Source: Halosimplex halophilum
GTDB lineage: Archaea; Halobacteriota; Halobacteria; Halobacteriales; Haloarculaceae
DNA length: 64,000 nt
Assembly: GCF_004698125.1 (NCBI RefSeq)
Contig: NZ_SRHV01000006.1
Span: forward strand, 62,001-126,000
Reading direction: 5' to 3'
Within the stretch, counting starts at the first letter, position 1; each line of letters starts with the position of its first letter. Made by a program: the position numbers and the translations under genes. A model generated the notes under the pieces. The model was given only the letters and a program-made list of their open reading frames with translations. It was not told where the DNA came from and searched no databases. Shown piece after piece: positions 18,585 to 30,917 of the stretch.

Positions 18585-19361
18585 ATGCTCGTCGAGTACG
18601 TGGCCCGCGGGATGAAGGCCGGCCTGGTCGCGGGGCTGGCGTTCGGACTCGTCGTCGCGCTCGTCACGAACCCGCTCGTGGCCGCGGCGGACGGCCTCGC
18701 CGGCGGCGACCACGCGGGTCACGGGCACGACACCGACCACGCTCACGAGGGCGCCGAACACGGCCACGGGGCCGCCGTCGGTGCCGCGGTCACGAACGGC
18801 GTCAGCGTCGCCGCCGGAGTCCTCTGGGGCCTCCTGCTGGGGGCCGTCGTCTTCGGCGTCGGCTTCTACTTCCTCGAGCCCGCGCTCCCCGGAGGGGGCG
18901 AGGTCGGGCGCTACGTGCTGGCCGGACTGGGCTTCCTGACCGTCTCCGGCGCGCCGTGGCTGGCGCTGCCGCCGCGGCCGCCGGGCGCCGAGCAGGCGCT
19001 GCCGGCCGAGACGCGCCTGCCCGTCTACGCGGGGATGATCTGTGCCGGCGCGCTCGCTAGCCTGCTCGCCGTGGCCGCGTACGGGCGGGTCCGCGCCGAC
19101 CGCGGCCCCGTCGTCGCGGCGGTCGCCGCCGCCGTTCCGCTCGCGCTGCTGGCGGTTCCCGCCGCGCTCGCGCCGTCGAACCCGGTCGCCCACGACCTGC
19201 CCGCGGGGCTCGCGGCCGGGTTCGTCGGCCAGGTCGTCGTCGGCCAGGCCGCGCTGTGGCTCGTCCTCGCCGCGGCCCACGTCCGACTCTCCCGGCGCTC
19301 GACCGCGGACGCCTCGGGCGGAGCGACGAGCGGGGCCGACTACGCGGTCACCGTCGACTGA
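18585..19361 (+). CDS. cbtA: CbtA, cobalt transporter membrane subunit
   Basis: A 258-residue membrane protein with five to six hydrophobic spans. A His/Asp-rich loop of roughly residues 40-65 (HAGHGHDTDHAHEG and HGHG) follows the first span, as in CbtA, and would capture Co2+. It follows cbtB by 2 bp, and its stop overlaps the ATG of the next gene (TGATG). Placement among cobN and chlID supports cobalt rather than nickel. Confidence 0.9.
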   Translation: MLVEYVARGMKAGLVAGLAFGLVVALVTNPLVAAADGLAGGDHAGHGHDTDHAHEGAEHGHGAAVGAAVTNGVSVAAGVLWGLLLGAVVFGVGFYFLEPALPGGGEVGRYVLAGLGFLTVSGAPWLALPPRPPGAEQALPAETRLPVYAGMICAGALASLLAVAAYGRVRADRGPVVAAVAAAVPLALLAVPAALAPSNPVAHDLPAGLAAGFVGQVVVGQAALWLVLAAAHVRLSRRSTADASGGATSGADYAVTVD

Positions 19362-19723
19362 TGCGCGACAGAACCGACGAGGTCCGCGAGCGGGGCTTCA
19401 CCGACCACGTGCTGGTCTGCACGAACGACCGCGACTCCGAGTACGCCGCCTGCGCCGAGGCCCACGGCGACGAGGTCTACGAGGCCGTCGCGGCGTGGCT
19501 CCGCGAGCGCGACGTGTTCTGGTCGTCGGTCCACGTCGCCGAGACGAGCTGTCTCGGGCTCTGCTCCGCCGAGGGGACCGCCGTCGCGGTCCACCCGCGG
19601 GGCCGCTGGTACTCCGACGTGGTCCCCGCGGACGTGCCCGCCCTCCTCGAAGCCGAGTTCGGTCCCGGCGCCTCGCGGCTGGGCGTGCCGGCGGACGACT
19701 CGGTCGCGGCGCCCGAGCCGTAG
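19361..19723 (+). CDS. Thioredoxin-like [2Fe-2S] ferredoxin
   Basis: A 120-residue protein from ATG 19361. Cysteines fit the thioredoxin-fold [2Fe-2S] pattern: C in HVLVCTNDRDSEYAAC and the pair in ETSCLGLCSAEG, followed by VAVHPRGRWYSDV, a pattern shared with the C-terminal domain of the CbiX fusion at 22441-23664. Probably an electron carrier for a redox step of corrin synthesis or for cobalt reduction. Last gene of the chlID-cbtB-cbtA group. Confidence 0.85.
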   Translation: MRDRTDEVRERGFTDHVLVCTNDRDSEYAACAEAHGDEVYEAVAAWLRERDVFWSSVHVAETSCLGLCSAEGTAVAVHPRGRWYSDVVPADVPALLEAEFGPGASRLGVPADDSVAAPEP

Positions 19724-22025: not shown

Positions 22026-22397
22026 TCACTCTTCGACCGGGAACGCCTCGTGGAGCACGTCGTGAGCCTCGCTGAGACCCTCGAAGACGCTCCCGCCCTG
22101 CGCGGTCAGTCGGTGGACCGCACGTTCGGCGTCGCGGACGGCGACGAGGCGACCCCGAAGGTAGTCGTACTCGGGGTCGTCGGCGTCCGTCGCGGCGATC
22201 TCCGCCTCCAGGTCGACGAGGGCGGCGTCGAGGTGGCGCTCGACGGCCGCGAGCGTCTCGGCGTTCGCCAGCGCCTCGATCGGCCCTTCCAGGTGGCCCT
22301 CCAGTTCCTGCTCCGCGTGCTCGCGGGCGTGGTCGTCGTCCGTACCGAGGACGTTCAACAGTCCGAGTCGCAGCGCTTCGATCTCGTAACAGCTCAT
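22026..22397 (-). CDS. DUF3209 family protein, B12-operon associated
   Basis: A 123-residue acidic, all-helical protein beginning MSCYEIEALRLGLLNVLG, which I recognise as DUF3209, a small haloarchaeal family found beside cbiX. It contains EHAEQELEGHLEGPIEAL and a C-terminal HDVLHEAFPVEE. One Cys (residue 3) and several His could bind metal. It is the last gene of the cbiT-led operon, 43 bp behind cbiX. A role in cobalt handling is guesswork from context. Confidence 0.8.
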   Translation of the reverse strand: MSCYEIEALRLGLLNVLGTDDDHAREHAEQELEGHLEGPIEALANAETLAAVERHLDAALVDLEAEIAATDADDPEYDYLRGRLVAVRDAERAVHRLTAQGGSVFEGLSEAHDVLHEAFPVEE

Positions 22398-22440: not shown

Positions 22441-23664
22441 TCAGAGCGTCTGGTCGACGAGTTCGGAGACGATGCGGTCGCGGTCGAGGTGGCCGGAGAC
22501 GATCCGCCCGGCGTCGTCGGCGTCGACGCCGCCGTACCAGACGCCGTCGGGGTAGACGGCGACCATCGGCCCCTCGCCGCAGCGGCCGAGACAGGACGAC
22601 CGCGTGATGCGGGCGTCGCACTCGTCGCTGTCGCGGGCCGCCTGTCGCAGGCGTTCGAGGACTGCGGGCGCGCCGTCGGCGGCGCAGGTCTGGTTGGTGC
22701 AGACGGCGACGTGTTTCTCGGGCGCGTCGTGGACGTGCGGGTCGTCGTCGACGTTCTCGCGGTCGGCGTGTTCGGCCTGGTGGGTCAGCGCCCGCAGCAT
22801 CGCGCGGGCGCCGCCCTGGTCGGCCTCGTAGCCGTCGAGTTCGACCTTGTACTTGCAGGTGTCACAGGACATGTCGACGCTGTCGGTGCGGGCCTCCTGC
22901 CAGCGGTCGCCGAGCACGTCCAGCAGCCGCGGGTCGGTCCCGAGCGGGTCGCCCGCCGCGGCGTCGACGTAGGGGTACTCGTCGTCGAACTCGTCGGCGC
23001 CGTCCCTGATGCGCCCGGTCAGGACGCCGTCGCCGAGCATGTACGGCAGGACGACGACGGCGTCCGGACGGGTCTTGGCGAGGTCGTGGAGCGTCTCCGC
23101 GAGTACCGGTTCGGTGACGCCGACGAACGAAGCCTCCACCCGGTCGAACGCGCGGCCCTCGTAGAGCAGGCGGGCGAGCTTGTGGGCGTCGGCGTTGGCG
23201 TCGGGGTCCGAGGAGCCGCGGGCGCAGAGCACCACGGCCACGTCGTCGGTCTCGCGGTCGACGCCCAGCCGCTCCTCGACCGCGGCCGCGCGGTCGTCCA
23301 GCAGGTCCACGATGGCCGGGTGGACCCCGAGGTGCGCGCCGCTGTGGACGGTCGTCCCCTCGTGGGCCGCACGGGCCTGCTGGACGGCCAGCGGCACGTC
23401 CGTCTTGACGTGGCTCGCCGCGAACAGCGACAGCTGGACGACGGTCACGGTCGAGACCGAGGCCGCGAGCCCCGCGACGGCCTCGTCGATGGCCGGCTCG
23501 GCGAGTTCGAGGAAGCCTGCGTCGACGGGGACGCCCAGCCGCTCCTCCAGGTCCGCGGCGAGCGTCCGGACCTGCTCGTTGGACTTCTCGCGGCGCGAGC
23601 CGTGGCCGACCAGCAGGACGGCCTCGTCGTCGAGACTCGCCGGGGCGGACTGGGTGGCGGTCAC
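22441..23664 (-). CDS. cbiX: CbiX sirohydrochlorin cobaltochelatase with C-terminal ferredoxin domain
   Basis: A 407-residue fusion. CbiX half 1 (about 12-125) has VGHGSRREKSNEQ and ASHVKTDVP with the metal-binding histidines; half 2 (about 140-270) is a repeat beginning VVLCARGSSDPD. A Cys pair in SCDTCKYK starts a linker, followed by a thioredoxin-like [2Fe-2S] domain (about 310-400: CTNQTC, SSCLGRCGEGPMVAVYPDG). Unlike the 10536-11327 copy, its His motifs are intact, so this is the likely working early cobaltochelatase. The start overlaps the preceding gene's stop by 4 bp. Confidence 0.9.
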   Translation of the reverse strand: MTATQSAPASLDDEAVLLVGHGSRREKSNEQVRTLAADLEERLGVPVDAGFLELAEPAIDEAVAGLAASVSTVTVVQLSLFAASHVKTDVPLAVQQARAAHEGTTVHSGAHLGVHPAIVDLLDDRAAAVEERLGVDRETDDVAVVLCARGSSDPDANADAHKLARLLYEGRAFDRVEASFVGVTEPVLAETLHDLAKTRPDAVVVLPYMLGDGVLTGRIRDGADEFDDEYPYVDAAAGDPLGTDPRLLDVLGDRWQEARTDSVDMSCDTCKYKVELDGYEADQGGARAMLRALTHQAEHADRENVDDDPHVHDAPEKHVAVCTNQTCAADGAPAVLERLRQAARDSDECDARITRSSCLGRCGEGPMVAVYPDGVWYGGVDADDAGRIVSGHLDRDRIVSELVDQTL

Positions 23665-24371
23665 CCCAGCTCACCCACCTTCCGGCCGGTCGCCCGTTCG
23701 ACGCTCCGGCGGAGTTTCGCCCGCCGATCGTCGGCGTACAGGCCCGAGTCGCCGCTGCCGGCGTAGACCCACTCGGCGAACGCGGCCGCGTCGGCGTCGT
23801 CGGCCAGCCCGAACCAGTGGCCGCCGGAACTCGTCTCCGAGAGGTCGTCGGTCGGAACCGTCGGGTCGGCGTCGGCAAGTAGGGTCCGGACCGTGCGGAG
23901 CAGGCGCTCGTCGTCGTGGACGAACGAGACGCCGACCGACTCGGAGGACTCGCGGAAACAGACCGTACCGCAGGCCTCCAGCAGGCCCCGCACCAGTTGC
24001 GGGCGGTGCTCGGCCAGCGCGTCGAAGCGGTAGCCGCCGGGCTGGCCGTCGATGGGGAGACCCAGCGCCGCGCCGGCGCGTTCGCCCGGCGCGCCGAACA
24101 CCTGCACCTCGTACTCGTCCTCGAAGCGCGTGACCGAGGCGTCGTGGGCGGACTCGCGCGCCCGCGTCCGGCGGTTCGCGACCGCCCCGTCGGCGCCGGC
24201 GACGGCGCCCAGCGCGTCCGCCGCCGTCTCGTCGCCCGTGCGTACGGTGATCCCGTCGCCCGTCACCTCGCCGTCGCCGGCGACGCGACCCCAGAAGTAC
24301 GCCGTGGCCGGCGTCGCCGCCAGCAGGTCCTCGGCGGGGTCGGGCCGCGGCGGGTCGGCCGCGTCACTCAT
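23661..24371 (-). CDS. B12-operon protein with LAGLIDADG-like fold signature
   Basis: A 236-residue acidic protein of no known activity, translationally coupled to the ferredoxin before it (8-bp overlap) and cbiX after it (4-bp overlap). Two segments look like a two-repeat LAGLIDADG arrangement: AYFWGRVAGDGEV near residue 25 and LVRGLLEACGTVCF near 125, each followed by a beta-rich stretch and helices; a YADDRRAKLRRS segment near the end fits the last helix. The second motif lacks the acidic residue (EACG where DADG is usual), so nuclease activity is unlikely. Proteins like it are, as I recall, labelled only 'cobalamin biosynthesis protein' in haloarchaea. Confidence 0.6.
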   Translation of the reverse strand: MSDAADPPRPDPAEDLLAATPATAYFWGRVAGDGEVTGDGITVRTGDETAADALGAVAGADGAVANRRTRARESAHDASVTRFEDEYEVQVFGAPGERAGAALGLPIDGQPGGYRFDALAEHRPQLVRGLLEACGTVCFRESSESVGVSFVHDDERLLRTVRTLLADADPTVPTDDLSETSSGGHWFGLADDADAAAFAEWVYAGSGDSGLYADDRRAKLRRSVERATGRKVGELG

Positions 24372-24693
24372 CGGCGGCCTCCACGGTCGTCGCGTCGGCC
24401 GGCGTCGCTCCCTCCTCGACCGTCGTCACCTCGATGGCGTCGACCGGACAGGCCGCGGCGGCCTGTCGGGCCGCATCGATCCTGTCGTCGTCGAAGGGAG
24501 CGGCCACCGTCTCGCCGCCGTCCGGTGCCACCTCGCTCGACCCGTCGTCCGGGAGCCCGTCCGCGCGCTCCGCGTCGCCGTCGATGGCGGCCAGGCCGTC
24601 CGCCGCCTCGACGAACCGGTCGTCGCGGACGAGACAGGCGAAGACGCCGTCGCAGGCCGCCCGGTCGAGGGACACGCGGTACTCAGTAGTCAT
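24364..24693 (-). CDS. Small ferredoxin
   Basis: A 109-residue ferredoxin-like protein. The first cluster half has only two cysteines (AACDGVFACLV); the CP motif is near the end (AAAACPVDAIEV). A 40-residue acidic insert separates them. Three cluster cysteines suggest a [3Fe-4S] or a [4Fe-4S] cluster with a non-Cys ligand, as in single-cluster ferredoxins serving P450s. Overlaps cbiH1 by 11 bp and the next gene by 8 bp. Likely redox partner for a step in the pathway. Confidence 0.8.
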   Translation of the reverse strand: MTTEYRVSLDRAACDGVFACLVRDDRFVEAADGLAAIDGDAERADGLPDDGSSEVAPDGGETVAAPFDDDRIDAARQAAAACPVDAIEVTTVEEGATPADATTVEAADE

Positions 24694-25687
24694 ACTTCGA
24701 CTCGTAGCCCCGCGGCGTGACCATCCGGTCGTCCCAGACGTACGTCTCCTCGTTGCCGACGATGATCGTCGTCGTCATGTCGACCAGGTCCGTCTCGCCG
24801 AGTTCTTCGAGGTCGCCGAGTTCGACGATCTCGACCCGTTCGTCCTCGCGGCCGGCGCCGTGGACGATGCCGACCGGCGTGTCGTCGGCGCGGTGCTCTT
24901 CGAGGATCTCGCAGCACTTCTCGAAGTTCGCGCGGCGCTTGCGGCTCCAGGGGTTGTAGATCGAGATGGTGAATCCCTCCTTGGCTGCGGCGTGAAGCCG
25001 CGATTCGATGGTCGGCATGTCCGTGAGGTGGTCCGACAGCGAGATGCTGACGGTGTCGTTCACGAGGGGGGCGCCGAGGCGGGCGCCGCAGGACTGAGCC
25101 GCGGGGACCCCCGGCACCACGTCGAACTCGACCATCGAGGCGGTGGCGCCCTTCGACTCCAGGATTTCGAGCGCGAGCCCGGCCAGCGCGTAGACGTTGG
25201 GGTCGCCGCTCCCGATGATCGCGACGTGGTTGCCGGCCAGTGCGCGGTCGATGGCCTCCTCCGTGCGGGAGACCTCGCCGCACATCGGCGTGTCGTAGAG
25301 TTCCTCGGCGTCCTCCCGAACTCCCTCGGGCAGCAGCTCGACGTAGGTCGTGTAGCCGACGATGTGCTCGGCGTCCAGCAGCGCCTCGCGGGCGCGGGCC
25401 GTCATGCCCTCGGGCTGGCCGGGGCCGAGCCCGACAGCGACAAGCTGGCCGGGGTCGGCGTCGAAGTCGTCGACGGTCGCGCCGACTTCCTCCTCCTCGT
25501 CTGTCGACGAGGCGCCACACCCCGAGGACGACCCGGACGACGAGGTGGAGGACGCGGACCCGCCGCACTTCGAGGACGAGTCCTCGCTCGCCGCGGCCTC
25601 CCCGTCCGGTGTCGAGGCGGCGCCGCACTTCGTTTCGGTGTCTGTGCTCGCGTCCGTCGTGGTGTCGGTGGTGTCGTCGGTGCTCAT
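24683..25687 (-). CDS. cbiH1: Precorrin-3B C17-methyltransferase family, copy 1 (CbiH/CobJ)
   Basis: About 334 residues from ATG 25687. The C-terminal 265 residues are a CobJ/CbiH tetrapyrrole methylase: AVGLGPGQPEGMT (SAM loop), IIGSGDPNVYALAG, VVPGVPAAQSCGARLGAPL, IYNPWSRKRRANF, and TTIIVGNEETYV. The first ~70 residues are an unusual Ser/Thr/Asp-rich extension with three isolated Cys-Gly pairs (KCGA, KCGG, GCGA) and a TDEEEE end; it may bind metal or be a flexible tether. Its start overlaps the cbiH2 stop (TGATG). The family adds the C17 methyl and contracts the ring. Confidence 0.92.
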   Translation of the reverse strand: MSTDDTTDTTTDASTDTETKCGAASTPDGEAAASEDSSSKCGGSASSTSSSGSSSGCGASSTDEEEEVGATVDDFDADPGQLVAVGLGPGQPEGMTARAREALLDAEHIVGYTTYVELLPEGVREDAEELYDTPMCGEVSRTEEAIDRALAGNHVAIIGSGDPNVYALAGLALEILESKGATASMVEFDVVPGVPAAQSCGARLGAPLVNDTVSISLSDHLTDMPTIESRLHAAAKEGFTISIYNPWSRKRRANFEKCCEILEEHRADDTPVGIVHGAGREDERVEIVELGDLEELGETDLVDMTTTIIVGNEETYVWDDRMVTPRGYESKYDY

Positions 25688-26598
25688 CAGAAGTCCTCCA
25701 CGTCGCGCCCGCCGCGGGGCGTGACGAGGTGTTTCCCGTGGTCGTTCTCCCAGACCGCCGTCTCCGCGTTGCCGACGAGGATGGAGGTGCCCATCCCGCC
25801 GACCTCGTCGTCGTGGTCGGTCGCCTCGCCCAGCGTCGTGATCGTGTGGGTCTCGTCGTCCAGATTGCGGCCGGCGTCGCCGCGGCCGGCGTCGTTGAAG
25901 ATGCCGGCGGGCACGTCGTCGGCCCGCTCCTCGCGCAGCACGTCGATGGCCCGCTCGTAGTCGCGCCAGCAGTTGTAGAGGACGACCACGAACCCGGAGA
26001 TGGCGGCCGCGCGCAGTTTCTCCTCGATCTCCGCCCAGCCGCGCCACTTGTCCGACAGCGAAACCGTGCAGAAGTCGTTCGACAGCGGCGCGCCGAGGTT
26101 CGCGGCGCCGCCCAGCGCCGCCGTGACGCCGGGGACGACCTCGATGGGCACGTCCTCGGCGCCCTCCGCCTCGGCCATCGTGAACAGCAGGTCGCTCTTG
26201 CCGTAGACGTTCGGGTCGCCGCCGGAGACGTGGGCCACGTCCTGGCCGGCGCGGACCCGCTCGAAGGCCTCGCGGGCGAGTTCGACCTGCCGACCCATCG
26301 ACGACCGGACGAGTTCCTGCCGGCGGCCGTCCGGCCGTTCGAGGACGGTCCCCGCCTCGCTCCCCGGGCTCTCCGACTCGGCGGTCGCGCCGCCGTCGGT
26401 CGCGGCCTCGACCGCGGCGCTCTCGGGCGGGAGCGTGCCGTCGCGCCGCAGGAACTCCTGGTAGAGGTTGGAGGCGACGACGCAGTCGGCGGTCGCCACC
26501 ACGTCCTTCGCCCGCTGGGTCATCGCGTGGGGCAGCCCGGGGCCGATACCCACGACGTAGAGCGTCCCCATCGCGCCGTCGGCGGTGTCGGCGGCCAC
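25687..26598 (-). CDS. cbiH2: Precorrin-3B C17-methyltransferase family, copy 2 (CbiH/CobJ)
   Basis: A 303-residue methylase from GTG 26598, 1 bp after the cbiG stop; ATG 26571 (MGTLYVVGIGPG) is the alternative. Core motifs: VGIGPGLPHAMT, VSGGDPNVYGKS, VVPGVTAALGGAANLGAPL, LYNCWRDYERAI and GTSILVGNAETAV. An insert of about 50 acidic residues (65-105) lies between strand 2 and the GGDP motif, unlike copy 1. Two CbiH paralogues in tandem are typical of haloarchaeal clusters; which catalyses ring contraction cannot be told. Confidence 0.9.
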   Translation of the reverse strand: MAADTADGAMGTLYVVGIGPGLPHAMTQRAKDVVATADCVVASNLYQEFLRRDGTLPPESAAVEAATDGGATAESESPGSEAGTVLERPDGRRQELVRSSMGRQVELAREAFERVRAGQDVAHVSGGDPNVYGKSDLLFTMAEAEGAEDVPIEVVPGVTAALGGAANLGAPLSNDFCTVSLSDKWRGWAEIEEKLRAAAISGFVVVLYNCWRDYERAIDVLREERADDVPAGIFNDAGRGDAGRNLDDETHTITTLGEATDHDDEVGGMGTSILVGNAETAVWENDHGKHLVTPRGGRDVEDF

Positions 26599-26599
26599 G

Positions 26600-27628
26600 C
26601 TACCGCCCCACCGCCACGGTCACGGCGTCGTCGAACCGCTCCTTCTCGCGGGCGAGTTCGTGGTCGCGGCCGCCGGCGATGGCCGACGCCTCGGCGATGC
26701 CGGGCCAGCCGATCAGCTCCTTCGAGCGCGACGGGGACGGCCCCTCGAAGCGCTCCAGCGTCTCCTTCTCGAAGGCGACGACGCCCGCGCCGATCCGGTC
26801 GGCCGCCTCGTGGAGACCGTCTTCGCCTTCCTTGCGGGTGCCCGTGGCGACGAATGCAACGTCCTCGACGGTGAGGTCGAGGTCCGTGAGCGCGCGCTCC
26901 CAGGCGTCGACCACCTGGTCGGCGTCGACGCCCGACACCGTGCCGGTGCCGAGGACGACACCGCCGTCGTCGGCGTCCCGGTTGCGCTTCAGCACGGTCA
27001 CGTCGTCCTCGACGAGCACTGCCTTCGGCCCGACGAGTCGCTCGACGGGACCGAGTTCGTCGTCCAGCACGGCGAGGTTCGTCGCGACCGTCGAGTCGCC
27101 GTTGACGACGTGGGCGTCGAGGGCCTTGGCCCGCTTCTCGACGCCCTGCTCGTCGGCGGCCTCGCTGGCGGTGGTCATCGCCGGCACCGCGCCCATCGAG
27201 GCGAGGTCGTCGGCGACCTGGTTGGCGCCGTGGTGGCCGCCCGTGATGGGGATGGCCCACGTCAGTTCCTCGTCGACGACGACGATGGCGGGGTCGTCCC
27301 ACTTGTCGTCGAGTAGGCCCGCCGTCTTGCGCATCGCGATGCCGCTGGCCATCAGCCCGACGAAGCAGTCGTACTCGCCCCAGTACTCCTCGAACACGTC
27401 GCCGTGGTACTCCAGGATCTCGACGGACTCGTAGCGGTCGCCGATGCCGTCGACGATGTCCTCCGCGGTGTCCATCTTGCGCTCGAAGGCGATGATGGCG
27501 ATGTCTTCGGCCACCTCACCGTCGGAGTCGGGGGTCGAACAGTGGCCGCTCGACCCGTTCGATTCGGCCGTATCGTTCGTGCCGCTCGATGCGTCCGCGT
27601 CGGTCGTGTCGTCGCTGTCGGTGCTCAT
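26600..27628 (-). CDS. cbiG: Cobalt-precorrin-5A hydrolase CbiG
   Basis: A 342-residue protein: acidic N-terminal extension (about 1-40, with one Cys in SGHCSTPD), CbiG N-terminal domain with YDCFVGLMASGIAMR and the GGHHGANQVADDLA motif, a middle domain, and a CbiG C-terminal domain (VVLGTGTVSGVDADQV, FVATGTRKEGEDGL, RSKELIGWPGIAEASAI). The enzyme opens the C20 delta-lactone and releases acetaldehyde in the anaerobic route. It is 2 bp after cbiF in the operon. Confidence 0.95.
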   Translation of the reverse strand: MSTDSDDTTDADASSGTNDTAESNGSSGHCSTPDSDGEVAEDIAIIAFERKMDTAEDIVDGIGDRYESVEILEYHGDVFEEYWGEYDCFVGLMASGIAMRKTAGLLDDKWDDPAIVVVDEELTWAIPITGGHHGANQVADDLASMGAVPAMTTASEAADEQGVEKRAKALDAHVVNGDSTVATNLAVLDDELGPVERLVGPKAVLVEDDVTVLKRNRDADDGGVVLGTGTVSGVDADQVVDAWERALTDLDLTVEDVAFVATGTRKEGEDGLHEAADRIGAGVVAFEKETLERFEGPSPSRSKELIGWPGIAEASAIAGGRDHELAREKERFDDAVTVAVGR

Positions 27629-27630
27629 TG

Positions 27631-28518
27631 TCAGTCGTCAGCCTCCTGGGTCGTGTCGTCGCCGCTCCCGTCCGCGCCCCCGCCCGATGCCCACCCGTCG
27701 TAGAGGTAGGAGCGCTCGTAGCCGGCCTTCCGGGCGGCGTCGCCGACGACGACCATCGCCGAGGCGCGGTAGCCCGCTTCCTCCAGGCGGTCGCCGATGG
27801 TGCCGATGGTCCCCTCGATCACGTCCTCGTCCGGCCAGGAGGCGTGGTAGACGACCGCGACGGGCGTGTCGGGGTCGTGGCCCGCCTCGACCAGGCGGTC
27901 CATCGTCTCGGCGACGGCGTGGGTCCCCAGGTAGATGCAGGTCGTCACGTCGCCCATCCCGACGAACTCGCCGATGTGGTCGTCCTCCGGGTCCAGCGTC
28001 TCCCCCTGGGGTCTGGTGAACGCGACGTGGTTGGCCACGCCGTTGAGGGTCAACTGGGTCCGTAGCGTCGCGCTGGCGGCGAACGCCGAGGTGACGCCCG
28101 GGACGACGTAGGTCGGCACCCCCTCGTGTTCCAGCGCGTCCATCTGCTCGACGGCCGCGCCGTAGACGGCGGGGTCGCCGCTGTGCAGTCGCACGACTTC
28201 GCGGCCGTCCCCGTAGGCATCGCGCATCAGCGGGACCAGTTCCTCCAGATCCTTGCCGATGGACGAGACCTGCTCGGCGTCGTCGCAGTACTCGTCGAGG
28301 AGTTCGCTGTTGACCAGCGACCCCGCGTGGACGACCAGGTCCGCCCCCTGGACGAGTTCCTTGCCCGTGACCGTCAGGAGTCCGGGGTCGCCGGGGCCGG
28401 CGCCGATGAACGGGATCCCCTCCTGGACCTCCCCCGCGGTGTGGTCCGCGACGCGGGCGTCGCGCTCGGTCGCTCGCCGGGCTGCCTCGGCGTCGATGGC
28501 CGCCTGGGGGTCGGTCAC
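27631..28518 (-). CDS. cbiF: Cobalt-precorrin-4 C11-methyltransferase CbiF/CobM
   Basis: A 295-residue tetrapyrrole methylase. Start is GTG 28518, overlapping the cbiL stop (GTGA). About 32 residues precede the core: [16 protein letters not shown] (SAM loop), [42 protein letters not shown], and [13 protein letters not shown]. These identify the CobM/CbiF class, which methylates C11. An acidic Gly-rich tail of 20 residues closes the protein. Confidence 0.94.
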
Positions 28519-29360
28519 CGGGCCACCTCCCCGGGGAACGCGTCGCCGCCGGACTCGCCCTCGGCCAGTTCCACCAGTTCGACCGGCCGGCGGTCGTCGC
28601 CGCTCGCGTCGTCCCGATCGAGGTCCCCGCCCGGCACGCCGCCGTCGGTGCGGACCTCACCCGTCGGGTCCTCGGCGTCGGCGAACGCCGCGGTCGCGGA
28701 CTCGTCGTCGAGGTCGCGCTTCTCGGCGTAGGCGAGCGTGTAGTAGTCCCGGTCGTCGATCTCGCCCGGGTCCGCCGTGACGACCGTCTCGCCCTGCTCC
28801 ATGTAGAGGCGGCGGCCGAACACCACGTCGTATCCCGCCTCGGTCAGTTGCTCGTGAGTCGCAGGCGCGTCGGTCACCTTGAACAGGACCATGCGGTCGG
28901 GGCCGGTCGGGGCGGCGCCGCGGGCGGCCTCCCGGAGCGCCAGGCTCGCACCCGCCGTCACCTCGACGTCCAGCGCCGTCGTGAACGCGGTGACGGCGCT
29001 GACCCCCGGGACCGTCTCGACGGCCACGTCGGGGTGGAAGGCGTCGAGCGTCCGCCGGAGGTGGCCGAACGTCGAGTAGACGTTCGGGTCGCCCAGCGTG
29101 ACGAAGGCGGCGGTGCCGTCGCGAGCGCGGGGCGCTATCTCGGCGGCCGCCGCCCTCCAGGCGCGCCGGAGTTCGTCCTCGTCGCGGGTCATCGGGAAGT
29201 CCACGTCGCCGACCCGCTCCTCGGAGACGTGTTCGGTCGCCACCGACCGCGAGAGCCGCCCCGGCGAGTAGACCACGTCCGCCGCTTCGAGGACCTCCCG
29301 CCCGCGGACGGTCACGAGGTCGGCGTCGCCGGGCCCGAGCCCGACGCCGTACAGCGTCAC
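28515..29360 (-). CDS. cbiL: Cobalt-precorrin-2 C20-methyltransferase CbiL
   Basis: About 281 residues from GTG 29360, overlapping the cbiT stop by 4 bp (GTGA). Motifs: YGVGLGPGDADLVTVRG, FVTLGDPNVYSTFGHL, ETVPGVSAVTAF and DRMVLFKVTDAP, which separate CbiL/CobI from other tetrapyrrole methylases. The C-terminal 50 residues are acidic and low in complexity. It methylates C20 of (cobalt-)precorrin-2, the first methylation after the cobalt step. Confidence 0.94.
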   Translation of the reverse strand: MTLYGVGLGPGDADLVTVRGREVLEAADVVYSPGRLSRSVATEHVSEERVGDVDFPMTRDEDELRRAWRAAAAEIAPRARDGTAAFVTLGDPNVYSTFGHLRRTLDAFHPDVAVETVPGVSAVTAFTTALDVEVTAGASLALREAARGAAPTGPDRMVLFKVTDAPATHEQLTEAGYDVVFGRRLYMEQGETVVTADPGEIDDRDYYTLAYAEKRDLDDESATAAFADAEDPTGEVRTDGGVPGGDLDRDDASGDDRRPVELVELAEGESGGDAFPGEVAR

Positions 29361-29953
29361 TGTGGCCCTCCGTCCCCGGAGCCATCGGTGCCGCCGCTCT
29401 CGTCGTCCGACACGTCGACGCCGCCGACCAGCATGTACACCGGGTTGTCCGCGTCGAAACTCGTCGCGCCGGCCAGGTCGTAGCCGTGGCTCACCTGGAA
29501 CTGGACGACCTCCGCCAGCAGGTCGCGCTCGCGGAACGCCTCCGTGGCGGCGCCCGCGACTTCGAGCCGCGAGACGTTCATGACGACGCGGTCGACCCCG
29601 GTCTCGACCGCGCGGTCGAGGACCGCCCCGTAGTTTCGGCTCCCGCCGAGAAAGAGGGCGTCGGCGTCGTCGGGCAACCCCTCGGGGGCTTCGGCCGCCC
29701 GGAGGGTCACGCCGTCGGCCGCGTCGTTGGCGGCGAGGTTCTTCCTCGTGGTCTCGAGCCGGTCGGGCTTCCGTTCGAGCGCGGTGACCCGCCCGGCGCG
29801 CCGCGCCGCCTCGACCGTGACGGCGCCGGTACACGAACCGACCTCCGCGAAGTGGTCGGCCGGCCCGAGGTCGAGTCTGTCGAGCAGGACGGCCCTGACC
29901 TCCCGCTTGGTCGGGCCGGCCTTCGCGTCGTGTGGCAGCGATACCTGTGCCAT
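29357..29953 (-). CDS. cbiT: Cobalt-precorrin-6B C15-methyltransferase (decarboxylating) CbiT
   Basis: A 198-residue Rossmann methyltransferase. ATG 29953 gives MAQVSLPHDAKAGPTKREVR, the usual CbiT opening (G-P-T-K-x-E-V-R). SAM motif FAEVGSCTGAVTVEA; ALERKPDRLETTRKNLAAN; LFLGGSRNYGAVL; the tail is acidic. First gene of the ten-gene operon; the TATA-like box lies 24-33 bp upstream, so the transcript is probably leaderless. The enzyme methylates C15 (C5) and removes the C12 acetate carboxyl. Confidence 0.94.
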   Translation of the reverse strand: MAQVSLPHDAKAGPTKREVRAVLLDRLDLGPADHFAEVGSCTGAVTVEAARRAGRVTALERKPDRLETTRKNLAANDAADGVTLRAAEAPEGLPDDADALFLGGSRNYGAVLDRAVETGVDRVVMNVSRLEVAGAATEAFRERDLLAEVVQFQVSHGYDLAGATSFDADNPVYMLVGGVDVSDDESGGTDGSGDGGPQ

Positions 29954-29976
29954 CGCCGAATACAACCACCGTAGGG

Positions 29977-30000
29977 CGTAAAACAATTTTGGTTGTTTTA
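29977..30000 (-). promoter_or_regulatory. cbiT operon promoter with overlapping inverted repeat
   Basis: The gene strand shows TTGTTTTACG (29986-29977), a TATA-like box 24-33 bp before ATG 29953. It overlaps a perfect 7-bp inverted repeat: AAAACAA at 29980-29986 and TTGTTTT at 29993-29999, 6-bp spacer. The upstream arm is part of TAAAACAACC, the word also found before the cbiX-like gene. The arrangement fits a repressor operator over the TATA box. Confidence 0.45.
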
Positions 30001-30101
30001 GGGAAAGTGAGATTGCTCGATCTCCCACTCAGTGGCCGGCGTCCGCAATCTCGGTCGAGTTAGGGCAAAGTTACTTTAGTTACCGGACCCGAGTGGGGAC
30101 G

Positions 30102-30917
30102 ATGCCGAACGACGCGGCCGACCCGGAGGAGTTCGGGGTGCTCCGGAGCAAGCGCAACGCCACGCGGTACCAGATCCTGGTCGAGATCGCCGAGCGCCAG
30201 CCGGCGGTCAACCAGCAGGAGATCGCCGACGCGATCGGGATCACCGCCCAGGCGGTCAGCGACTACCTCCAGGACCTGGTCGAGCACGGGTACGTCGAGA
30301 AGCACGGACGCGGCCGGTACGAGGTGACCAAGGAGGGCGTCGACTGGCTCATCTCCCAGACGGACGAACTGCGCCACTTCGTCCAGCACGTCTCCGAGGA
30401 GGTCATCGGGCAGGTCGAGGTCGAGACGGCGATCGCCACGACCGAAATCGACGAGGGCGAGACCGTCTCGCTGACGATGCGGGACGGCGTCCTGCGGGCG
30501 ATGTCCGGCGACGCCGGGAGCGCGACCGCGGTCGCGGTGACGGACGCCGAGCCCGGTCGGGACGTGGGGATCACGAACTTCGACGGCGTGGTCGACTACG
30601 ACCTGGGGTCGGTGACGATCGTCTCGGTCCCGCAGGTCCAGAACGGCGGGAGTTCGGCGGTCGACACCGAGAGGGTCGTCGAACTCGCCGGGGACCACGA
30701 CCTGCTGGCGGTCGGCGGGGCCGAGGCCGTCGCCGTCGCCGAGGCGACCGACCTCGACCCCGACATCCGGTTCGGGAGCCCCGCGGCCGTCCGGGAGGCC
30801 GCCGCGAAGGGACTGGACATCCTGCTGCTCGCGTCGACGGAGCTGGTCTCGGCGCACACCGACAAACTCCGCGACCAGAACCTCAGCTACGAGGTCGTCG
30901 ACCCGGCGGAGGCCTAG
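30102..30917 (+). CDS. Archaeal winged-helix regulator divergent from the B12 operon
   Basis: A 271-residue protein. A winged helix at about 15-75 has NATRYQILVEIAE, NQQEIADAIGITAQAVSDYLQDLVEHGYVEK and a GRGRYEVTKEG wing. A long alpha/beta C-terminal domain follows, with alternating strands and helices (DVGITNFDGVVDYDLGSVTI; LLAVGGAEAVAVAEA; DILLLASTELVSA) and possible ligand binding. It starts 148 bp from cbiT on the other strand, so it may sense a corrinoid or metal and control the locus; this is position-based inference. ATG 30102 is preferred over GTG 30093; a TATA-like TTACTTTAGTTA lies about 30 bp upstream. Confidence 0.75.
   Translation: MPNDAADPEEFGVLRSKRNATRYQILVEIAERQPAVNQQEIADAIGITAQAVSDYLQDLVEHGYVEKHGRGRYEVTKEGVDWLISQTDELRHFVQHVSEEVIGQVEVETAIATTEIDEGETVSLTMRDGVLRAMSGDAGSATAVAVTDAEPGRDVGITNFDGVVDYDLGSVTIVSVPQVQNGGSSAVDTERVVELAGDHDLLAVGGAEAVAVAEATDLDPDIRFGSPAAVREAAAKGLDILLLASTELVSAHTDKLRDQNLSYEVVDPAEA

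What the first reader, a model, noticed from the sequence alone, without database searches (positions are those of the whole stretch)
23661..24371. LAGLIDADG-like protein fixed inside the cobalamin operon
The gene is translationally coupled on both sides inside the B12 operon, yet the protein has two segments like LAGLIDADG helices (FWGRVAGDGEV; LVRGLLEACGTVCF), with the second catalytic acid apparently missing. A homing-nuclease fold recruited into corrin biosynthesis or its regulation (DNA binding without cutting) would be unusual. The function of these haloarchaeal proteins is not established to my knowledge.
Basis: partly seen in the sequence, partly recalled or inferred. Interest (0 to 1): 0.52.

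Follow-up and report, generated by a model that had tools for sequence, protein, structure and literature searches.

The report
Dead nuclease fold in B12 operon
Salt-loving archaea carry, inside their vitamin B12 operon, a protein with the shape of a DNA-cutting homing enzyme that has lost its cutting residues; it is nearly always found with the cobalt-inserting enzyme CbiX and probably helps that step.

Summary
Confirmed: a 236-aa minus-strand ORF (23661-24371) overlapping a ferredoxin gene by 8 nt and cbiX by 4 nt. AlphaFold2 gives a two-domain LAGLIDADG fold (pTM 0.80; best matches I-Tsp061I, I-DmoI, WhiA). It cannot be a classical nuclease: the second catalytic acid is Cys in 140 of 141 orthologues, the first is Asp in only 59 of 141. 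Two cysteines at the former active site are near-invariant.
Orthologues occur in 146 of 151 CbiG-bearing haloarchaeal genomes and in none of the other 141 sampled. In 145 of 151 the gene lies in the operon with a 2Fe-2S-tailed CbiX. The five genomes without it are the only ones with a His-rich-tailed CbiX; in one, that CbiX sits exactly in the missing gene's slot. In bacterial CbiXL such a tail is proposed to store and deliver metal. Three of the five lack heme-copper oxidase.
Best reading: a domesticated, cutting-dead LAGLIDADG protein acting at the CbiX cobalt-insertion step, perhaps in cobalt handling. Mechanism inferred, untested. The gene was already known as function-unassigned (HVO_B0055, by position). 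Genomes lacking it also lack CbiD and CbiJ, so it is not the general filler of those gaps.

The parts
23661..24371 (-). focal gene: catalytically dead two-domain LAGLIDADG-fold protein, 236 aa
24270..24311 (-). first LAGLIDADG-like helix (aa 21-34); D33 is the would-be catalytic acid
   Evidence: D 59, S 55, G 15, A 6, N 6 of 141
23958..24023 (-). second LAGLIDADG-like helix and start of the next strand (aa 117-138) with C134 (in place of the acid) and C138
   Evidence: C134 140 of 141, C138 141 of 141, E132 141 of 141
23910..23918 (-). H152-D153-D154 after the second strand of domain 2; proposed to lie near C134/C138 (by topology only)
   Evidence: H152 130 of 141, D154 138 of 141
22441..23664 (-). 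cbiX, bilobal sirohydrochlorin chelatase with MxCxxC and C-terminal 2Fe-2S thioredoxin-like domain (about 22441-22752)
24364..24693 (-). ferredoxin (Fer4_15), overlaps the focal start
22026..22397 (-). DUF3209 gene, conserved end of the module
24683..25690 (-). cbiH2 (precorrin-3B C17-methyltransferase type); start not refined
25687..26598 (-). cbiH1 (second CbiH-like methyltransferase)
26600..27628 (-). cbiG
27631..28518 (-). cbiF
28515..29378 (-). cbiL (start approximate)
29357..30028 (-). cbiT

Best explanation
The gene encodes a domesticated, pseudo-symmetric LAGLIDADG-fold protein that can no longer cut DNA. It is a fixed component of the haloarchaeal cobalt-early B12 operon and works at the cobalt-insertion step together with the 2Fe-2S-tailed CbiX, most likely in supplying or handling cobalt. 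A Cys134/Cys138 site (perhaps with His152 and nearby acids), lying where the nuclease held its metal, would bind Co(II) or the metallated tetrapyrrole. It would do the job that the His-rich tail of canonical CbiXL is proposed to do. Shown: fold (predicted), loss of catalytic acids, conservation, co-inheritance, and exchange with a His-rich CbiX in one genome. Inferred: metal or tetrapyrrole binding, contact with CbiX, and a link to life in oxygen.
For: Fold: pTM 0.80, pLDDT 76; Foldseek 2dch E 1.1e-5, WhiA 3hyj 7.7e-5; VIA Z 14.0, rmsd 3.3, 183 aligned (2dch) and Z 12.6 (WhiA 8dy7). A second, weaker model of a Halorubrum orthologue again hits 2dch first, E 2.7e-4. Dead site with conserved Cys: C134 140 of 141, C138 141 of 141, D33 59 of 141. 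Co-inheritance: 146 of 292 class genomes have it, CbiG 151 of 292. Among the 151 operons, focal, ferredoxin, 2Fe-2S tail and DUF3209 are all present in 143 and all absent in 4. Exchange: the four module-less genomes' only operon CbiX and the extra CbiX of G052 all end in a His-rich tail (12-40 His), against at most 9 His in about 137 aa for 146 tailed CbiX. In G052 the His-rich CbiX takes the focal slot with the same ATGA overlap, while the 4 other genomes of its genus have focal and a single CbiX. G052 is the only one of 151 with two CbiX at E<=1e-60. Its CbiG nests among ordinary operons. The His-rich region of CbiXL is proposed for metal storage and delivery (PMC7689651, passages). COX1 is absent in 3 of the 151 operon-bearing genomes, and all 3 lack the module.
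Against: No biochemical or genetic evidence. The one-for-one exchange is a single event (G052). The other four focal-less operons (three from one CbiG lineage, plus G129) lack the whole module, so focal cannot be singled out there. G269 and G052 have COX1 but no focal, so it is not strictly needed for aerobic life; oxidases other than PF00115 were not tested. Spatial closeness of C134, C138 and H152 is argued from topology, not measured. H152 is missing in 11 of 141 and C134 in 1. Profile comparison with intein LAGLIDADG domains is weak (P 0.0048, probability 7%). In CbiXL the His-rich region is dispensable for insertion.
Confidence: 0.4

Rival explanations
1. Accessory protein that binds sirohydrochlorin or Co-factor II, not free cobalt: it shields or channels the air-sensitive intermediate between CbiX and the CbiL/CbiH methyltransferases, with ferredoxin and the 2Fe-2S domain keeping it reduced.
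For: Same genetic linkage. All 3 COX1-lacking operon genomes lack the module, chance 1.8e-5 if genomes were independent, which they are not. Conserved aromatics W27 (140 of 141) and Y203 (141 of 141).
Against: Does not explain why a His-rich CbiX, a metal-holding device, takes the focal slot in G052. G269 and G052 are COX1-positive without focal.
Confidence: 0.22
2. Regulator: it binds DNA or RNA polymerase without cutting and controls the cob operon, as WhiA does in Gram-positive bacteria.
For: WhiA is the nearest domesticated relative by fold. A DNA-binding ancestry is implied by the fold.
Against: No HTH found. In WhiA the LAGLIDADG part is degenerate and the HTH binds DNA (PMC3781837, passages). 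Conserved K/R on modelled strands are only R72, R82, R140; median net charge -20. A separate MarR-type gene lies divergently next to cbiT in 41 of the 151 loci. The gene sits mid-operon.
Confidence: 0.13
3. It fills, or helps to fill, the missing CbiD (C1 methylation) or CbiJ (reduction) step, as proposed in general for the four unassigned cob genes.
For: CbiD is absent in 292 of 292 genomes and CbiJ in 22 of 22. PMC8305020 names the unassigned genes as candidates.
Against: Four genomes with cbiT, L, F, G, two CbiH, CbiX and no focal protein also lack CbiD and CbiJ, so something else must serve there. No enzyme family is detected in the protein. PMC8305020 also names the CbiH paralogue HVO_B0058 as candidate for the methylation.
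Confidence: 0.12
4. Decayed selfish homing endonuclease stuck in the operon without a function.
For: LAGLIDADG fold and lost catalytic residues.
Against: 21 columns invariant among 25 orthologues down to 33% identity, median dN/dS 0.18 over 33 pairs, kept in the operon in 145 of 151 genomes, no relative in viral contigs.
Confidence: 0.03

Closest known systems
HVO_B0055 and its haloarchaeal orthologues ('cobalamin biosynthesis protein' in several RefSeq records)
   Same: Same operon position: between cbiX1 (HVO_B0054) and HVO_B0056, next to cbiH2 (HVO_B0057). The RefSeq record of Halorussus aquaticus shows the same order.
   Different: Nothing; it is the same family (orthology to HVO_B0055 inferred from position, its sequence was not held). 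The fold, the dead site and the CbiX exchange are not in the passages I read.
WhiA (DUF199) LAGLIDADG domain
   Same: Two-domain LAGLIDADG fold, lost catalytic residues, domesticated in a host.
   Different: WhiA has a C-terminal HTH that binds DNA; the focal protein has none, sits in a metabolic operon and has conserved cysteines at the former active site.
Monomeric LAGLIDADG homing endonucleases I-Tsp061I and I-DmoI
   Same: Best structural matches, Z 14.0 and 13.3.
   Different: Catalytic acids lost; not in an intron or intein; not mobile.
Bacillus megaterium CbiXL (4Fe-4S MxCxxC plus His-rich region)
   Same: The five His-rich haloarchaeal CbiX have the same layout; the His-rich part is proposed to store and deliver metal.
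   Different: Genomes with the focal gene have a CbiX without the His-rich part, with a 2Fe-2S domain and the LAGLIDADG protein instead.
CobW, cobalt supply protein of the aerobic pathway
   Same: Gene next to a cobaltochelatase gene; functions in Co(II) supply (PMC7689651, passages).
   Different: G3E GTPase, late pathway; only a functional analogy.

Membership tests
LAGLIDADG fold superfamily | alpha-beta-beta-alpha-beta-beta-alpha fold, here twice in one chain | tested here: met
   AlphaFold2 secondary structure and PDB matches; second model agrees with lower confidence
LAGLIDADG fold superfamily | sequence profile match over the curated cut-off | tested here: not met
   Pfam LAGLIDADG_3 14.3 bits against cut-off 22.5 for the window protein; 15 of 25 members E<=0.1, best 4.6e-5; hhalign to intein domains P 0.0048
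LAGLIDADG homing endonuclease | an acidic residue near the end of each LAGLIDADG helix | tested here: not met
   second position C in 140 of 141; first position D in 59 of 141
LAGLIDADG homing endonuclease | encoded in an intron, intein or free mobile gene | tested here: not met
   in the cob operon in 145 of 151 genomes; none in viral contigs
LAGLIDADG homing endonuclease | sequence-specific DNA cleavage | not testable with these tools
   no assay
WhiA | C-terminal HTH domain | tested here: not met
   no HTH family at E<=10; structural matches span residues 13-236 with LAGLIDADG chains
Cobalamin operon component (HVO_B0055 family) | conserved position between ferredoxin and cbiX in a cob operon | tested here: met
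   145 of 151 operons; ferredoxin not detected in one of these (L211)
CbiD or CbiJ replacement | present wherever the ring pathway lacks CbiD and CbiJ | tested here: not met
   G001, G007, G129, G269, G052 lack focal, CbiD and CbiJ
Cobalt chaperone | binds Co(II) and passes it to the chelatase | not testable with these tools
   only indirect: conserved Cys, exchange with His-rich CbiX

The most novel reading that the evidence does not exclude
A homing-endonuclease fold was turned into a cobalt-handling partner of the B12 cobaltochelatase. The nuclease metal site became a cysteine site, and together with ferredoxin, a 2Fe-2S tail on CbiX and DUF3209 it lets the oxygen-sensitive cobalt-early pathway run in air; where it is missing, a His-rich CbiX takes over.
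Probability: 0.27. Interest if true: 0.82.

Novelty: new variant of a known kind. Interest (0 to 1): 0.6.

Why it matters
It would be a LAGLIDADG protein doing metabolic, not DNA, work, and it narrows an open annotation question: four unassigned genes sit in the haloarchaeal B12 cluster. The nearly all-or-none module and the natural exchange in one genome turn a vague 'candidate gap filler' into a specific, quick test: does deletion of HVO_B0055 cause B12 loss that extra cobalt, anoxia or a His-rich CbiX can rescue?

Tried and rejected
Sequence search of the PDB with the protein, the 21-row and the 25-row profile gave only chance matches; fold comparison was needed. Profile comparison with haloarchaeal intein LAGLIDADG domains was weak. 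Search for relatives outside the class: 41 of 392 phylum genomes match at E<=0.01, all in the window's order; one of them (G007, E 0.006, inside a 1218-aa frame) is probably an intein, not checked. A scan of viral contigs found no relative. The idea that focal is the missing CbiD or CbiJ was set back by genomes that lack all three. The idea that tailed CbiX is inactive and focal is the real chelatase was set aside because both expected catalytic His are kept in 146 of 146 tailed CbiX. dN/dS pairs were compared without codon alignment (equal length only); a few high values (0.56, 0.63) are probably misalignments.

Literature searched; no paper linking a homing-endonuclease fold to cobalamin enzymes was seen in these listings. 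That metabolic roles of LAGLIDADG proteins are otherwise undescribed is recall. Which helix positions carry the catalytic acids in LAGLIDADG nucleases is recall, too.

Full report
Observation. The finding is a 236-residue ORF on the minus strand at 23661-24371, with an ATG start. It overlaps the upstream ferredoxin gene by 8 nt and the downstream cbiX gene by 4 nt. The operon reads cbiT, cbiL, cbiF, cbiG, cbiH1, cbiH2, ferredoxin, focal, cbiX, DUF3209.

Fold. Pfam LAGLIDADG_3 is only a hint for the window protein (E 0.049, 14.3 bits against a cut-off of 22.5), but 15 of 25 diverse orthologues match at E<=0.1, the best at 4.6e-5. AlphaFold2 on a 21-sequence alignment gave pLDDT 76 and pTM 0.80, with the order of helices and strands of a LAGLIDADG domain twice over. 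Foldseek put I-Tsp061I first (2dch, E 1.1e-5), with WhiA (3hyj, 7.7e-5) and I-DmoI also among the ten matches at E<=0.001. VIA-align 2 gave Z 14.0 (rmsd 3.3, 183 aligned) for 2dch, 13.3 for I-DmoI and 12.6 for WhiA in an RNA polymerase complex. A Halorubrum orthologue modelled from the same sequences was weaker (pLDDT 63, pTM 0.57), but 2dch was again first (E 2.7e-4). Against this, HMMER profiles found no LAGLIDADG chain in the PDB and hhalign with intein domains was weak. I take the fold as very likely.

Not a nuclease. In 141 full-length orthologues the acid position of helix 2 is Cys in 140 and Ala in 1. The acid position of helix 1 is Asp in 59, Ser in 55, Gly in 15, Ala in 6 and Asn in 6. 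C138, H76, E132, R216, K219 and Y203 are invariant (141 of 141); H152 is kept in 130. Five of 146 genomes' rows were dropped before this count because their profile match was split. Selection is purifying: median dN/dS 0.18 over 33 pairs (equal-length pairs, not codon-aligned).

Distribution. In 292 genomes of the class, 146 hold the protein, 151 hold CbiG and 151 hold the operon type of CbiX. All 146 are CbiG genomes. CbiD is found in 0 of 292, although 6 of 14 control genomes ring. I fetched the CbiG neighbourhood of the 150 other genomes; the window is the 151st. Ferredoxin, focal, 2Fe-2S tail and DUF3209 are all present in 143; one lacks a detected DUF3209 (L142) and one a detected ferredoxin (L211). 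Four lack all four (G001, G007, G129, G269). G052 lacks only focal. In G021 the operon is split and focal lies on another contig. A full scan of the five focal-less genomes found no orthologue elsewhere (one weak match inside a 1218-aa frame in G007). Outside the class no match appeared among the phylum genomes sampled.

The exchange. The CbiX of the four module-less genomes, and the extra CbiX of G052, end in His-rich tails (12-40 His); none has a 2Fe-2S domain. The 146 tailed CbiX have at most 9 His in the corresponding stretch of about 137 residues. In G052 the His-rich CbiX starts at the same ATGA overlap with ferredoxin that focal uses in its sister species, and the 2Fe-2S-tailed CbiX and DUF3209 follow. 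The four other genomes of that genus hold focal and one CbiX. By CbiG, G052 nests among ordinary operons. So in one genome a His-rich CbiX has taken the place of focal alone. In bacterial CbiXL the His-rich region is proposed to store and deliver metal, though it is dispensable for insertion (PMC7689651, passages).

Oxygen. Heme-copper oxidase subunit I is missing in 4 of 292 genomes (G001, G007, G093, G129). Three of these have the operon and all three lack the module. If genomes were independent, this has a chance of 1.8e-5; they amount to two lineages at best. G269 and G052 have the oxidase and no focal. Anaerobic life is inferred from this one marker only.

Mechanism. The genetics point to the cobalt-insertion step: focal is inherited with the tailed CbiX and is missing only where a His-rich CbiX exists. 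The conserved cysteines sit where the nuclease held its metal. I therefore favour cobalt handling for CbiX, at 0.4. Binding of the tetrapyrrole instead is the nearest rival. A WhiA-like regulator is less likely: no HTH, few conserved basic residues on strands, and WhiA itself binds DNA with its HTH (PMC3781837, passages). A general CbiD or CbiJ replacement is unlikely, since focal-less genomes lack those too.

Known or new. PMC8305020 (section 3.3 read in full) lists HVO_B0055 as function unassigned and a candidate for pathway gaps; PMC6719526 (passages) notes missing CbiD and CbiJ in Halonotius. RefSeq names some orthologues 'cobalamin biosynthesis protein'. My ten paper searches listed nothing on its fold or role. 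The gene is known; the dead LAGLIDADG fold, the module and the CbiX exchange appear to be new observations.

Noticed in passing
L064:9940-12800 (G052): Two CbiX genes in tandem, a His-rich one in the focal slot and a 2Fe-2S-tailed one; the only one of 151 genomes with two.
   Followed up: yes
L061, L062, L063, L065: cob operons with His-rich CbiX and without ferredoxin, focal, 2Fe-2S tail and DUF3209; three of the four genomes lack heme-copper oxidase, while G269 has it and its operon groups with G001 and G007, which suggests horizontal transfer.
   Followed up: partly
window 30093-30917: MarR-type HTH gene with DUF7839, divergent from cbiT; a homologue lies divergently within 2 kb of cbiT in 41 loci.
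   Followed up: partly
window 18585-19723: CbtA cobalt transporter gene followed by a small 2Fe-2S-like protein related to the tail of CbiX.
   Followed up: no
L211:9251-10177: The focal gene of G014 carries a run of repeated S-N-A-T residues inserted near the junction of its two domains.
   Followed up: no
L066 and L067 (G021): cob operon split over contigs; the focal orthologue is only about 33% identical to the window protein but keeps both cysteines and has lost the first acid.
   Followed up: partly
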